Shown: in pieces, positions 47,633-59,817 of the stretch
Layout of the letters: every line of letters starts with the position of its first letter
How positions within the stretch are numbered: the first letter of the stretch is position 1
DNA from: Cyanobacteriota bacterium
GTDB lineage: Bacteria; Cyanobacteriota; Cyanobacteriia; CACIAM-69d
Direction: 5' to 3'
DNA length: 64,000 nucleotides
Assembly: GCA_022402445.1 (NCBI GenBank)
Contig: JAKRSF010000012.1
Location: 1-64,000 of the forward strand
The notes under the pieces: model-generated
Told to the model about the DNA's origin: nothing
The model's input: only the letters and a program-made list of their open reading frames with translations
Database searches by the model: none
Position numbers and translations under genes: made by a program

Positions 47633-47805
47633 GTGGGCTCTACCCATTGAGCTCCGCCGCGATCGCAACCCTAGCCCCCGGGTTTGGTGCATCAACCGAT
47701 GAGGACATCTACTGAGGATTGAGAACTGGGAGAAATGCTCCCAGCGCTCCGATCCTCCAACGTTTCACTTCATGGATTCCCTACCACTACGGACGCACAA
47801 ACCCC

Positions 47806-49455
47806 ATGCCATCCTCTGTACCAGAAGTTTTGTTCCTGCAAACTCCCCCGACGTTGACACTGGAGGAAGGCGATGCCGCCGCCAACGCATTTGCCGTTTT
47901 CTCAAATGCACCCAGTGGGAATGTGGCGATCGCCCTTAGCTCCGATGAGGCGGCCCCCGGTAATTCCCTGATTTTGGATAGTATTTCCTTACCGGCCTTG
48001 GGTCTTGGTACTCCTTCTCCGGGGGATCTACGGGGGCGGGAAGATGCTTTGGCTCAGGGAAACCGCACGTTCAATGTGACCGTGACGGCTTCCACCCCAA
48101 CAGCTCTGACGACACCCTCTGTGACGATCGCGGTGACGGTGCTCGATGACGACACGGCCTACGCGGTCCAAGGAACTGGCTCAGGCCCAGAGGGCAACAG
48201 CGGCACCCGAACGGTGACCTTTACCGTGACCCGCAGCGGCGATCTGCGCTCGTCAACCACGGTCGAGTTCACCCTGGGGGGCACCGCGATCGCGGGGACG
48301 GACTACCTAGCCGCCGGGGGTACCGCAGGCACGATCACCTTCGCACCGACGGAAACGGAACGGACGGTAACCGTCGAGATTGTGGGAGATACACAGGTTG
48401 AGGCTGACGAAACCATCACCCTGACCCTGAACCATCCCACGGCAAAGGACTCGGCCCTGCTCCTGACGCCGACGGCAACGATCACCATCGCGAATGATGA
48501 CGTCACGCCAGCGCCGACGCCACCTTTACCCACACCGACGCCGACGCCCGCACCCGTGCCCCAACTGCGCGGCACGACGGACGACTCTGGGACGGCGACG
48601 GGAATCGTGGTGCCGGATGGCGCGCCCGAACCACTACCCTTGGCGGCCCTGGGCGGTCAGGCGGCAACGCAAACGGTGCGCATCGCCAATTCGGGGGACG
48701 GTCCCCTGACGATCGCGGCTCCCCAACTGCGGACGATCGGGTCTCTGCCGCCGGGGATTGATCCGGCCAATGTGTTTGAAGTGTTCCTCTCCTCGGATCG
48801 GGTCGCGCCGGGGGGCAGCGGAGAGTTGGTGATTCGCCTGCGGGGGGATTTGCCGCCCGGTGACTATCGGAGCATCCTGACGGTCCAGACGAATGTGCCG
48901 GGGATGGAGATCTATAACTTCACGGTGGCGGGCCAGGTGACTTTGCCCAGGGCGGTGGATGTGGCCCCCGCGATCGCGGCGAAGCTGATGGAGCCGCTGC
49001 CGGAAACGGGTGGAGATGATCGCATCTTTGGCGGTGCGGGCAACCAGTGGATCAATGGCTCCTTTGGCGACGATCTGATCAATGGCAACGGCGGCCAGGA
49101 TGTGCTCACCGGCGGCCCCGGCGCGGACAGTCTCTACGGCGGTCGGGGGGACGATTTCCTGCGGGGCGGTCTTGGGGATGATTGGCTGTCGGGGGATTTG
49201 GGGAGCGATACCCTGCTGGGGGGTCAGGGGGTAGACCGCTTTGCGATCGGTGCTGAGGACGGCGGCGACTTCATCTTGGACTACGAGCCGGGGGTGGATC
49301 GTTTCCTGCTGAAAGCGCCCCTGACGGCGGATCAGGTGCAGTTGACGGCCCTGGGCAATTCGACCCAAGTTTTTGCGGGCGATCGCCTCATGGCAACGGT
49401 GGTGGGGATTCCGGCGACCCTGCTGTCGGCGGCGGATTTTTCGCCGATCACCTAG
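47806..49455 (+). CDS. Calx-beta and RTX-repeat calcium-binding secreted protein
   Basis: 549 residues from MPSSVPEV. A Calx-beta-like segment (about 10-115) and a clear Calx-beta domain (about 120-230: STTVEFTLGGTAIAGTDY, ITFAPTETERTVTVEIVGD) are followed by a Pro/Thr linker (PAPTPPLPTPTPTPAPVP), an Ig-like choice-of-anchor domain and RTX nonapeptides (GGPGADSLYGGRGDDFLRGG, about 430-480). RTX repeats fold on calcium after type I secretion; no N-terminal signal peptide is visible, consistent with that. No type I exporter genes in the window. Probably an extracellular surface protein. Confidence 0.85.
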   Translation: MPSSVPEVLFLQTPPTLTLEEGDAAANAFAVFSNAPSGNVAIALSSDEAAPGNSLILDSISLPALGLGTPSPGDLRGREDALAQGNRTFNVTVTASTPTALTTPSVTIAVTVLDDDTAYAVQGTGSGPEGNSGTRTVTFTVTRSGDLRSSTTVEFTLGGTAIAGTDYLAAGGTAGTITFAPTETERTVTVEIVGDTQVEADETITLTLNHPTAKDSALLLTPTATITIANDDVTPAPTPPLPTPTPTPAPVPQLRGTTDDSGTATGIVVPDGAPEPLPLAALGGQAATQTVRIANSGDGPLTIAAPQLRTIGSLPPGIDPANVFEVFLSSDRVAPGGSGELVIRLRGDLPPGDYRSILTVQTNVPGMEIYNFTVAGQVTLPRAVDVAPAIAAKLMEPLPETGGDDRIFGGAGNQWINGSFGDDLINGNGGQDVLTGGPGADSLYGGRGDDFLRGGLGDDWLSGDLGSDTLLGGQGVDRFAIGAEDGGDFILDYEPGVDRFLLKAPLTADQVQLTALGNSTQVFAGDRLMATVVGIPATLLSAADFSPIT

Positions 49456-54423: not shown

Positions 54424-54513
54424 AGACCCTGCACTCCTAGCGGAAGAGAATACGTTAGAACGACTGAGGGCGCTAGTGCTCCGCGACGAGTCCCGCGAGA
54501 AGCAGGGTTAGCT

Positions 54514-54741
54514 GAAGAAACCTGGGTTGGATGGGACTATTCCGGTCCCAAGCTCTATCAGGAGGTCAAGCAAATCCGTGGTCCACCGGTGGAAGTGGAA
54601 ATTGTGAAGCACTAGAACAAGGAATTCAAGATATTACCGCAACGTTGAATTGTGGAGCGCACCTTTGGTTGGCTGAATCGACTTCATCGGCTGAGCCAGG
54701 ACTATGAGCTTCATGCCCACCGTAGACGAAGAGATAATTGA
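54514..54741 (+). pseudogene. Decayed IS5-family transposase C-terminal fragment
   Basis: Reading from 54514: WVGWDYSGPKLYQEVKQI, VEVEIVKH, stop, NKEFKILPQR, stop, IVERTFGWLNRLHRLSQDYE. The block (V)VERTFGWLNRxRRLSxDYE is the C-terminal signature of IS5-type DDE transposases. In-frame TAG (54613-54615) and TGA (54646-54648) and loss of the N-terminal two thirds show it is dead. A perfect 10-bp inverted repeat ATGAAGTCCT (54741-54750)/AGGACTTCAT (54776-54785) follows. It marks the left edge of an AT-rich accessory region. Confidence 0.85.
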
Positions 54742-54943
54742 TGAAGTCCTGTTGAAGGTAATATCGAAGCGCCCAAGGACTTCATGATTCCTTTAAAGAT
54801 CAACTTTTAAGTGGCACGTCAACGAAATTTAGCGCTTGGCTTTTTTATCCTGGCGTCCCCGCCCTGCAATTGATAAATTGATAGCAAGTCAAACCGCTAG
54901 ACCGTACAGTAGTGTCCCTTGCTGGCAAAGAGGAAAATTAGCC

Positions 54944-56213: not shown

Positions 56214-58532
56214 TCAAGGGTGGCCCGCGATCGCGCCCTCCCGTTCCCGCAGAAGCTGAATCACCTCATCACTAACCGTATGATCCTTCGTATCCGCCGC
56301 GTGTTGGATCAACAGTTCTCGCAGACACTTTGCATCTTCTAGATCTAAAAAACTCGCCAACATGAAATAAACCCCACGAAATCTCGGATCACTGAGGTGC
56401 TGCTTCTGGCGATCAGGATGGGAAATCAGCGCTTGCAGGATGAAAAACTCTGCAATCTTATCGTGGCGGAAATACCACTTCTGCTTTGCCTCCCCATTGC
56501 CATTCGTCACCTCACGGGGAACCATCATGCGGTGCTGTGCGAGGCAGGAAATTTCATCCCGAAACTCCTCTTCCGTCATACCCGCCTTATCATTCAGCCG
56601 CATTTGATACACCACCTCTGAAAAAGCTTCCAGGGGGAATGGGCACAAATGTTGCTCCTCATAGACCTTTGCCATCAAGCCGTAAAGCTGTTTTTGCAAG
56701 CCAAAGGGATGGGGCCATTCACCCGCCGCTAGCATCAGCGCGATCATTGATAGATCCATCGGATTCGACAAAATCCGCTGCATCGCCTCAAGCTCCGGCT
56801 TCGGCTGCCCCAGCATATCCGCCAAATACTGAATGCAAGCCTTTTCGTAATCCTTGCCCGTTAATTTCGAATTGTGGGGCAACGTCGCCACCCGAGACAG
56901 CAGAAAGGCTTGGATCTGATCTCGATCTAGGGGCTGCATCACATATTTTTGGGCTGTCGTTGGCGATCGCCAATCCATCGGCTGCGTCGAGAGGATGATA
57001 TCTCCCTTAAAGTAATTTTCCGCAAACTCAACTATTTTGGCTCGCGTATCTGCATTAACCTCATTCAAGCCATCAATGCAAATCGCTACTGCCCCACTGT
57101 AAATCAAATGTCTCAGGAAATTAGGATCTTTAATTTCCTCCCCATGCAATTTCTTCTGAATCGCTTCAATCACCCCATCCTGACAGCGCCTTGCCAACAG
57201 GTAAACCACAATCTGCTTCGATTCCTTGCAAAGATGGCGAAGGAACATGGTTTTTCCCAAGCCTGATCCCCCTTCCAGGATAATTTGTCCCTTAAACTGA
57301 GGAATCGCCACCGGCAAAGGCTTCAACTCCCCTTTCCCTGAACTGATGACCTTCAAGCTTGGAAAGTAGGCTTGGTCATTAAAACTTGATAGATCCGCAT
57401 CCGCCAATAAAGAATCACGGAATGGCTCAAACAACTTCTTGCGAAGAAATGGTACAAACACCAAGACAGGACCAACGTAACCCGCACCAAAGAAACGTCG
57501 CATCCATGGATTCCAAAAGAAAAAACCTTGAATCTTGGGAAATCTAGGATAGAGAAAAACAAGAGCCATCCAGACTCCAACATGCAAAACCAAAACACCC
57601 TTAAAGTTTTTAGAATATTGGAGAACTTTTTCCTCAATCAGACTTTGTCTTCTGCTCTTTAATGATATCAATACGTTGGCTGCTGATTTGCTTAGTCCTT
57701 CATGATTTTCAAGGTTTTTCAGAGAAGAGTGTATGCTTTTCTCAACATTTTCCATTATATTGATTGACTGATTGATTTCATTTGGTGTCTTAGGTTGATA
57801 ATTGATAACATTAAAAAGACTCTTCAATGCTTCTATCGAAACTCGTCGAATTGTGACATTGTCACTCTGATTCTGGAGTAGAGCTATAATGGAATTCAAA
57901 ATAGGCTGAATTTCAACAGGATCCAGCTTTTCTCCCCACTCTTCTAAAGCTCTCAGAGTGCGAGCTTGAACGTCATCGTCTTTATTTTTTAAGATTTTAA
58001 TTAGCGCGGGAATTGTAGCCTCTTTGTCACTGCCAATAGAGCCTAAAGCATATGCGGCACCTGCTTTGACTTTATTATCCTCAGCTTCATTCATGAGCAC
58101 ATCAATCAATATCGGCACTGAGGTATGAGCTTCTTTGCCGATATTTCCAAGAGCATATACGATACTTTCGCGAATTACAATGCTTTTTTTTGCCTGTTTT
58201 AATCTTTGAGAGAGGCTGTCAACAATTTCTTGTTCTCTTCCTAATATCTTTTTCTCGACACCAAGAGCTCCCAATGCATAGGCTGATTTTGCAGATATTG
58301 TTTCATTGTCATCGTCAAGATTTTTCAACAGGGGATTGATTGACGCAGCTCCACAATCAATTACAAGACGTATTTTTGACTTGTCAACCAGAGTTTCCTG
58401 CATCAATTTGTCGATGTCACTGTCATTACACGCTGCAACAACTGCCTCGCCATTTAAAAAACATGTGCAGGAGACGAGAGCCAAGAACTTTAACGAGAGG
58501 GCAAGGTTTTTTCTCATTATCTTACTCATCAT
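56214..58532 (-). CDS. Membrane-associated HEAT-repeat NACHT-like NTPase
   Basis: 772 residues. Order: signal peptide or N-terminal anchor (1-35, LALSLKFLALVSCTCFL); HEAT repeats (about 60-245: AKSAYALGALG, RESIVYALGNIG, KAGAAYALGSIG, RTLRALEEWG); hydrophobic segments at about 312-328 and 350-362; then a P-loop NTPase with Walker A GGSGLGKT (421-428) and Walker B AICIDGLNEV (483-492), and a helical tail with FPLEAFSEVVYQM and WYFRHDKIAEFFILQAL, as in STAND/NACHT proteins. If the signal is real, the repeats face the periplasm and the NTPase the cytosol. The ATG overlaps the upstream stop by 4 nt. AT-rich and island-located. Confidence 0.8.
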   Translation of the reverse strand: MMSKIMRKNLALSLKFLALVSCTCFLNGEAVVAACNDSDIDKLMQETLVDKSKIRLVIDCGAASINPLLKNLDDDNETISAKSAYALGALGVEKKILGREQEIVDSLSQRLKQAKKSIVIRESIVYALGNIGKEAHTSVPILIDVLMNEAEDNKVKAGAAYALGSIGSDKEATIPALIKILKNKDDDVQARTLRALEEWGEKLDPVEIQPILNSIIALLQNQSDNVTIRRVSIEALKSLFNVINYQPKTPNEINQSINIMENVEKSIHSSLKNLENHEGLSKSAANVLISLKSRRQSLIEEKVLQYSKNFKGVLVLHVGVWMALVFLYPRFPKIQGFFFWNPWMRRFFGAGYVGPVLVFVPFLRKKLFEPFRDSLLADADLSSFNDQAYFPSLKVISSGKGELKPLPVAIPQFKGQIILEGGSGLGKTMFLRHLCKESKQIVVYLLARRCQDGVIEAIQKKLHGEEIKDPNFLRHLIYSGAVAICIDGLNEVNADTRAKIVEFAENYFKGDIILSTQPMDWRSPTTAQKYVMQPLDRDQIQAFLLSRVATLPHNSKLTGKDYEKACIQYLADMLGQPKPELEAMQRILSNPMDLSMIALMLAAGEWPHPFGLQKQLYGLMAKVYEEQHLCPFPLEAFSEVVYQMRLNDKAGMTEEEFRDEISCLAQHRMMVPREVTNGNGEAKQKWYFRHDKIAEFFILQALISHPDRQKQHLSDPRFRGVYFMLASFLDLEDAKCLRELLIQHAADTKDHTVSDEVIQLLREREGAIAGHP

Positions 58533-59254
58533 CTATGTATACTACAAGGTCTTTGATAGTCGGGCTCCTTTTTTCCGTTTACCGTTGTAAATACATAGCG
58601 TCCTCCTGAAAACTCAGCGCACTCGTTTATTTGATGATCTATCAAATTTGATGAAACCGTGTGCAAAAGATAGGCGATGTCATCTCCTTCTGCTGCCAAA
58701 GCTGGACGACCGATTAATGCGTGCCAAATACGGCCAAACAGCGGATATGTTCTGGGAACTGATCTTTCATTACTTGAAACTCTGGGTAGAGCCAGCATAG
58801 CCTCTAAGGATATAGATATATCAATATCTGGCTCTTCATGAAAACCAACCTGTGGCTTTAATACTTCATAAATGCGATTTGCAAGTGAATTTAGATTTGA
58901 AGTGATTTCGGCGAATTCAGGAAACTGACTTAATGCTGAATTTTCAGCACTAAAAGCTTGATCATAGGACAATTCAGAAGTCCATTCAATACTGTGGATT
59001 TTCAGAACTTTAGACTCACAGTTAATTTCTTTAGATGGTTTCAGAAAATTGCAATTTAAGCGTAGTCTTGCTAGCTTAATTACAGAGTTTCTTGCAATTG
59101 CTTGAGTTTGAAGAGACCACTCAGCAACAGACAGTAATCGATCCAATGCCGATCGCGGGAAAGAGTCTTCAGGGGACGACTGAAGAAACTCAGCAACTTC
59201 TGGCTGCTCTAGGAAAGGTTGATCGAGACGGACGATTCCCCTAAATTCATTCAT
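58529..59254 (-). CDS. Unknown protein, first gene of the HEAT-NACHT operon
   Basis: 241 residues, no family recognised. No signal peptide or membrane helix seen. Helix-rich N-terminus (LEQPEVAEFLQSSPEDSF, AEWSLQTQAIARNSVIKLAR) and a C-terminal part with RIWHALIGRPALAAEGDDIA, YLLHTVSSNLIDHQINE and GGRYVFTTVNGKKEPD. Its TGA overlaps the ATG of the NACHT-like gene (ATGA), so translation is likely coupled and the two products probably work together. AT-rich composition shared with that gene. Could be a regulator or effector of the NTPase; nothing in the sequence decides. Confidence 0.7.
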   Translation of the reverse strand: MNEFRGIVRLDQPFLEQPEVAEFLQSSPEDSFPRSALDRLLSVAEWSLQTQAIARNSVIKLARLRLNCNFLKPSKEINCESKVLKIHSIEWTSELSYDQAFSAENSALSQFPEFAEITSNLNSLANRIYEVLKPQVGFHEEPDIDISISLEAMLALPRVSSNERSVPRTYPLFGRIWHALIGRPALAAEGDDIAYLLHTVSSNLIDHQINECAEFSGGRYVFTTVNGKKEPDYQRPCSIHR

Positions 59255-59744: not shown

Positions 59745-59817
59745 TGGAGACAAGGAGACTCGAACTCCTGACGTCCTGCTTGCAAAGCAGGCGCTCTACC
59801 AACTGAGCTATGTCCCC
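59745..59817 (-). tRNA. tRNA-Ala (UGC)
   Basis: 73-nt cloverleaf on the minus strand: GGGGACA pairs with TGTCTCC apart from a G-T or two, anticodon loop TTTGCAA with TGC (complement at 59782-59784), T-loop TTCGAGT. CCA is not encoded. Its 3' end faces the AT-rich island, the usual orientation for tRNA-targeted integration. Confidence 0.95.

What the first reader, a model, noticed from the sequence alone, without database searches (positions are those of the whole stretch)
56214..59254. Two-gene operon: membrane HEAT-repeat NACHT-like NTPase plus unknown partner
The 772-aa protein joins an export signal, HEAT repeats, two hydrophobic segments and a NACHT/STAND-like NTPase (Walker A 421-428, Walker B 483-492). 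In most bacterial NACHT proteins the sensor is C-terminal and cytosolic; here the repeat sensor comes first and may be periplasmic. An unknown 241-aa gene overlaps it by 4 nt. The pair is AT-rich, sits beside tRNA-Ala and is near an IS remnant, all typical of transferable defence or stress systems. A defence role is inferred, not shown.
Basis: partly seen in the sequence, partly recalled or inferred. Interest (0 to 1): 0.75.

Follow-up and report, generated by a model that had tools for sequence, protein, structure and literature searches.

The report
Transmembrane NLR-like receptor with exported HEAT array
A cyanobacterial gene encodes what looks like an inside-out relative of our intracellular immune sensors: its repeat "antenna" is predicted to sit outside the cell membrane and its NACHT ATP switch inside, and well over a hundred relatives occur in filamentous cyanobacteria, many with antenna repeats evolving as a variable binding surface; what it defends against, if anything, is not shown.

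Summary
P0001 (56214-58532, -, 772 aa) has an export signal, HEAT repeats, one convincing membrane helix and a NACHT ATPase; P0002 (241 aa) overlaps it by 4 nt. The pair is AT-rich, beside tRNA-Ala, 1.4 kb from an IS remnant.

NACHT membership is supported by profile-profile alignment (320 columns through the winged helix, probability 98%; an AAA control aligns only the P-loop), though single-sequence Pfam scores stay below cut-off. AlphaFold makes one 50-residue helix (278-327) and short helices instead of a second membrane span, so HEAT outside and NACHT inside is the best reading.

It belongs to an apparently unnamed family: at least 176 relatives, nearly all in filamentous cyanobacteria, with distant ones in rhizobial plasmids, sharing the order signal-solenoid-TM-NACHT. 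In 56 of 83 genes inspected the HEAT array is a DNA tandem repeat; differences between repeats concentrate on the five positions that engineers randomise in alphaRep binders (pN/pS 1.8 versus 0.65 elsewhere). The window's own array is diverged, not of this type.

P0002 is a rare partner (3 genomes, each directly upstream). No defence-island or phage association was found. Best reading: a transmembrane NLR-type receptor for an extracytosolic ligand. Immunity or allorecognition is inferred; the effector is unknown.

The parts
56214..58532 (-). 772-aa signal peptide - HEAT - TM - NACHT protein (P0001)
58529..59254 (-). 241-aa partner P0002 of unknown fold, no signal peptide, 4-nt overlap with P0001
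58431..58532 (-). export signal of P0001, residues 1-34
   Evidence: hydropathy 1.73; equivalent signals in relatives
58353..58430 (-). stretch bounded by Cys35 and Cys60, the conserved cysteine pair just after the signal
   Evidence: such a pair in the 14 compared members of the window-type subgroup
57798..58352 (-). HEAT repeat solenoid, residues 61-245
   Evidence: Pfam HEAT_2; AF2 helical pairs with pLDDT mostly 80-96
57549..57608 (-). transmembrane helix, residues 309-328, end of a continuous helix 278-327
   Evidence: hydropathy 1.86; AF2
57408..57539 (-). juxtamembrane short helices, residues 332-375, strongly conserved
56418..57296 (-). NACHT NTPase plus winged-helix module, residues 413-705
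   Evidence: hhalign Prob 98.1 over 320 columns; NOD2 among Foldseek matches
57249..57272 (-). Walker A GGSGLGKT, residues 421-428
   Evidence: invariant core positions
57057..57086 (-). Walker B AICIDGLNEV, residues 483-492
   Evidence: near-invariant
56442..56471 (-). winged-helix motif FRHDKIAEFF, residues 688-697
   Evidence: aligns with FxHxxFqEY of NACHT proteins
59745..59817 (-). tRNA-Ala(TGC) flanking the segment
54438..54809 (+). IS remnant at the other flank
   Evidence: 75% identical to an IS transposase region in the same genome

Best explanation
P0001 is a single-pass transmembrane NLR-type (STAND) receptor. After export, the HEAT solenoid (residues 61-245, probably closed by a Cys35-Cys60 disulfide) sits in the periplasm or thylakoid lumen and binds a protein ligand. 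Binding is passed through one long helix (278-327) across the membrane to the cytosolic NACHT/winged-helix switch (413-705), which exchanges ADP for ATP and oligomerises. Output is then given by the conserved juxtamembrane helices (332-375, possible membrane disruption) or by a cytosolic partner such as P0002. Shown here: the domains, their order, the family and its conservation. Predicted: topology. Inferred: ligand, oligomerisation, output, and use in immunity or allorecognition.
For: The same order signal-solenoid-TM-NACHT recurs in relatives across filamentous cyanobacteria and, with an unrelated-looking alpha-solenoid, in rhizobial plasmids at 33-35% identity. NACHT: hhalign Prob 98.1, E 7e-14 over 320 columns; AAA_22 control aligns 24 columns only; NOD2 among Foldseek hits, E 2.5e-4. 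Topology: signal-like N-termini, Cys pair after the signal in the window-type subgroup, net charge about +3 just after the TM against about 0 before it, one long helix rather than two spans. Sensor: tandem-repeat HEAT arrays in 56/83 genes; repeat differences concentrate at alphaRep binding positions 18,19,22,23,26, pN/pS 1.82 against 0.65.
Against: No experiment. No effector domain recognised. The window's own HEAT array is not of the tandem hypervariable type. TM hydropathy is only moderate in many relatives (mean 1.5). Whole-model pTM is 0.49, so domain arrangement is uncertain. No defence-island signal. Individual Pfam NACHT scores are below the gathering cut-off (18.6 against 26.7).
Confidence: 0.5

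Rival explanations
1. The same receptor serves envelope, stress or developmental signalling (for example cell-cell contact in filaments) rather than immunity: HEAT reads an endogenous periplasmic protein and NACHT sets a non-lethal response.
For: No defence-island or phage association. Relatives are concentrated in filamentous, differentiating cyanobacteria. In two genomes the upstream neighbour overlaps the relative by 4-17 nt and, where complete, is an exported SLH protein; rhizobial relatives have a small secreted partner.
Against: Patchy distribution (41 of 380 class genomes matched at all), many decayed copies, plasmid carriage and diversifying binding positions fit conflict better than housekeeping.
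Confidence: 0.27
2. An ordinary cytosolic bacterial NACHT antiphage protein: the N-terminal hydrophobic stretch is spurious and HEAT plus NACHT both lie in the cytosol, with the hairpin 310-368 as membrane effector.
For: Two hydrophobic segments can be drawn as a hairpin; bacterial NACHT proteins of the usual kind are common in these genomes.
Against: Hydrophobic signal-like N-termini recur in 53 of 76 scored sequences, several of the rest being truncated at contig ends, and also in the rhizobial branch, where one annotated start had skipped it; Cys pair; the second segment is not modelled as a span.
Confidence: 0.15
3. A bilin-lyase or phycobilisome-related HEAT protein (NblB/CpcE-like) with a fused ATPase.
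For: HEAT part scores weakly to NblB (E 6e-7).
Against: Far below the family cut-off (29 against 300 bits), covers generic HEAT repeats only, and relatives occur in non-photosynthetic rhizobia.
Confidence: 0.03

Closest known systems
Bacterial NACHT antiphage proteins (bNACHT; PMC12169576)
   Same: NACHT module with DGxxE Walker B and FxHxxxxEF winged helix
   Different: bNACHT order is N-effector, NACHT, C-sensor; here the repeat sensor is N-terminal, exported and separated by a TM, with little after the winged helix and no recognised effector
Fungal NLRs with high internal repeat conservation (PMC4986451)
   Same: Repeat arrays with near-identical units and diversifying binding positions in other family members
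   Different: Fungal repeats are WD/ANK/TPR, C-terminal and intracellular; the window's own array is diverged
DGR-diversified NACHT/STAND sensors of multicellular bacteria (PMC10907252)
   Same: Putative sensors attached to NACHT, one predicted periplasmic; multicellular hosts
   Different: Those use C-type lectin domains mutated by retroelements; here HEAT repeats with tandem-array turnover; DGRs were not searched for
KAP NTPases (own knowledge)
   Same: Membrane-associated STAND-like P-loop NTPases
   Different: KAP transmembrane segments lie inside the NTPase domain; here the TM precedes Walker A by about 90 residues

Membership tests
NACHT clade of STAND NTPases | Walker A and hhhhDGxDE Walker B | tested here: met
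   GGSGLGKT and ICIDGLNEV, near-invariant; N replaces the D of DGxDE
NACHT clade of STAND NTPases | Homology through NACHT helical and winged-helix regions, not just the P-loop | tested here: met
   hhalign 320 columns, Prob 98.1, against 24 columns for the AAA_22 control
NACHT clade of STAND NTPases | Pfam PF05729 above gathering score | tested here: not met
   18.6 bits against 26.7; 15 of 16 relatives match weakly. Treated as a sensitivity limit because the profile test above is met; the cut-off is a detection threshold rather than a biological feature
NACHT clade of STAND NTPases | Nucleotide-dependent oligomerisation | not testable with these tools
   needs biochemistry
bNACHT antiphage proteins | N-effector / NACHT / C-terminal sensor order | tested here: not met
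   Signal, HEAT and TM precede NACHT; only about 75 residues follow the winged-helix motif
bNACHT antiphage proteins | Antiphage activity | not testable with these tools
   needs phage challenge of a strain carrying the gene
KAP NTPases | TM segments within the P-loop domain | tested here: not met
   TM 309-328, Walker A 421
NLRs with high internal repeat conservation | Near-identical tandem repeat units | tested here: not met
   P0001 has no tandem array; 56 of 83 genes in the set do
Known PADLOC defence systems | Match to a system profile | tested here: not met
   P0001 only Nhi E 0.0018 over residues 414-537; P0002 none

The most novel reading that the evidence does not exclude
A widespread class of transmembrane NLR-like receptors in multicellular cyanobacteria that read extracytosolic proteins through rapidly diversifying HEAT arrays and signal through a cytosolic NACHT switch, i.e. 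a bacterial surface immune or allorecognition receptor built on an NLR core; the window gene is a deep-branching two-gene variant with a cytosolic partner.
Probability: 0.4. Interest if true: 0.85.

Novelty: new variant of a known kind. Interest (0 to 1): 0.62.

Why it matters
NLR and NACHT receptors are understood as intracellular sensors with the sensor at the C-terminus. A family that keeps the NACHT switch inside but places the sensor N-terminally and outside would link NLR logic to surface sensing, and would make testable whether filamentous cyanobacteria recognise phage, predators or non-self cells with a diversifying repeat receptor.

Tried and rejected
Single-protein scan of genome contigs found nothing; the alignment-based scan found 176. 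P0002 structure prediction failed (pLDDT 41.5); no Pfam, NCBIfam or PADLOC match for P0002. Remote P0002 homology in L051 is not seen by hhalign (3%), but Smith-Waterman against shuffles gives 0/500 for both comparisons; one search is circular for L051, because that sequence was in the query alignment. Rhizobial C-terminal extension (about 190 aa) suspected to be PD-(D/E)XK-like from memory; no PDB match even at E 10, so not claimed. attL/attR-like repeat of the tRNA 3' end: none. No plasmid DNA homologue of the segment. Insertion beside tRNA-Ala is consistent but unproven: in relative G064 the rhodanese-tRNA-Ala pair is kept, but the next genes resemble carotenoid-synthesis genes (reading by eye) and the NACHT pair lies elsewhere. 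A search for the neighbouring glycosyltransferase in five family relatives was empty but lacked a positive control. Defence-gene enrichment among neighbours was checked on 83 proteins without a matched control set; only scattered generic hits.

Full report
OBSERVATION. The two genes are as described: P0001 (56214-58532, minus, 772 aa) and P0002 (58529-59254, minus, 241 aa), overlapping by 4 nt. GC is 44% and 40.5% in a window near 61%. tRNA-Ala lies at 59745-59817. A fragment of an IS transposase lies at 54438-54809, 75% identical to a region of the same genome that holds transposase ORFs (the transposase reading is by eye). Other neighbours are housekeeping genes: tyrosyl-tRNA synthetase, glycosyltransferase, sulfotransferase, and by eye a rhodanese, a penicillin-binding protein and an orotidine decarboxylase. 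The host is a cyanobacterium, inferred from the organism names of near relatives.

DOMAINS OF P0001. HEAT repeats are significant. NACHT is weak by single-sequence HMM (E 0.0017, below cut-off). Profile-profile comparison of the family C-terminal region with NACHT proteins of related genomes aligns 320 columns from the P-loop through the winged-helix motif (Prob 98.1, E 7e-14), while an AAA_22 control aligns only 24 P-loop columns. AlphaFold2 (25 sequences, mean pLDDT 80, pTM 0.49) gives the solenoid, one long helix 278-327, short helices 332-375, and the NTPase fold. Foldseek finds rabbit NOD2 among many solenoid matches.

TOPOLOGY. Signal-like N-termini recur across the family and in rhizobial relatives, one of which is annotated with a start that skips it. 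In the window-type subgroup two cysteines follow the signal (Cys35 and Cys60 here), which would suit a disulfide outside the cytosol. The net charge just after the TM is about +3 and before it about 0. A second full span would put the NTPase outside, away from ATP; the model instead shows short helices there. The best reading is a single pass with HEAT outside and NACHT inside. It is a prediction; periplasm and thylakoid lumen cannot be told apart.

FAMILY. In 380 class genomes 41 have a match to the NACHT half at E 1e-5; a little over half of these are strong (E below 1e-50), the weakest may be unrelated P-loop proteins. An alignment-based scan confirmed 176 relatives, 80 kept, nearly all filamentous cyanobacteria, with MAG strays labelled Competibacteraceae and Planctomycetota that may be binning errors. 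One IMG/VR contig of high GC carries a member. Rhizobium and Mesorhizobium plasmids carry distant members (33-35% identity over residues 312-772) with a different solenoid, an extra C-terminal region and a 4-nt-overlapping gene for a small secreted protein. In the tree P0001 pairs with the G064 protein (L054) as a deep branch; cysteine-type members are scattered near the base and tandem-repeat members form the large derived group of mostly heterocystous lineages.

REPEATS. 56 of 83 genes have the HEAT array as a DNA tandem repeat, usually 105 or 93 nt, up to 14.5 copies at 72-99% match. Among 275 units in 38 genes, differences between repeats of one gene concentrate at the five positions flanking and following the VR pair; these map to positions 18, 19, 22, 23 and 26 of alphaRep, which are randomised to make protein binders (PMC3754942). 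The mapping of numbering is mine. pN/pS there is 1.82, against 0.65 at other unconstrained positions and 0.41 in the framework. Units were found with a motif that fixes the framework positions, so only the comparison with unconstrained positions is fair; none of 20,000 permutations reached the observed value. Pairs are not independent and gene conversion can distort pN/pS. P0001 itself has no such array.

PARTNER. P0002 has no known domain and no convincing model. Its relatives are in G064 (E 9e-16) and, remotely, in G325 (0/500 shuffles); all three lie directly upstream of a family member on the same strand. Most family members lack such a gene. It is a real but rare accessory, probably cytosolic because it has no signal.

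FUNCTION. The anatomy says receptor. Conflict use is suggested by patchiness, decay of many copies (stops and insertions), plasmid carriage and diversifying repeats; it is not supported by defence-island context (83 neighbour proteins, no recurrent system), phage records or known-system profiles (the PADLOC matches of relatives are mostly to HEAT-bearing models). The effector is unknown.

LITERATURE. Searches of the held open-access library found no description of this family. The closest ideas are bacterial NACHT defence (PMC12169576), fungal high-internal-conservation NLRs (PMC4986451) and DGR-diversified NACHT sensors, one predicted periplasmic (PMC10907252). Subscription literature was not searchable, so 'unnamed' is provisional.

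Noticed in passing
window 54438-54809; L207 1033-1850: IS remnant 75% identical to part of a transposase region elsewhere in the same genome.
   Followed up: yes
L130 7437-9491; L131 3-854: Two relatives have an upstream gene overlapping by 4-17 nt; in L130 it encodes an exported protein with S-layer homology domains.
   Followed up: partly
L134 9007-9507, L135 9016-9522, L137 9013-9513: Rhizobial relatives carry a 4-nt-overlapping downstream gene for a secreted protein of about 166 aa without a Pfam match, and an extra 190-aa C-terminal region on the NACHT protein.
   Followed up: partly
L135 987-3101: Trypsin-like peptidase fused to an endonuclease/exonuclease/phosphatase domain, two genes upstream of the Mesorhizobium relative.
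   Followed up: no
L039 12179-12481, L067 8111-8422, L087 9174-9488, L105 9100-9444: Short-period tandem repeats (low-complexity ORFs) lie directly upstream of several tandem-HEAT members in Nostocales.
   Followed up: no
L053 7853-13948: A family gene split into pieces with other ORFs, apparently insertion sequences, lying between them.
   Followed up: no
L043 8339-12181 and 7259-8332 (same contig as L076): A relative with a C-terminal extension of about 530 aa followed by an AAA_35 ATPase gene.
   Followed up: partly
L034 3639-8999: A large nSTAND1-WD40 protein lies upstream of the partner-NACHT pair in G064.
   Followed up: partly
window 47719-49455: Protein with Calx-beta and RTX calcium-binding repeats.
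   Followed up: no
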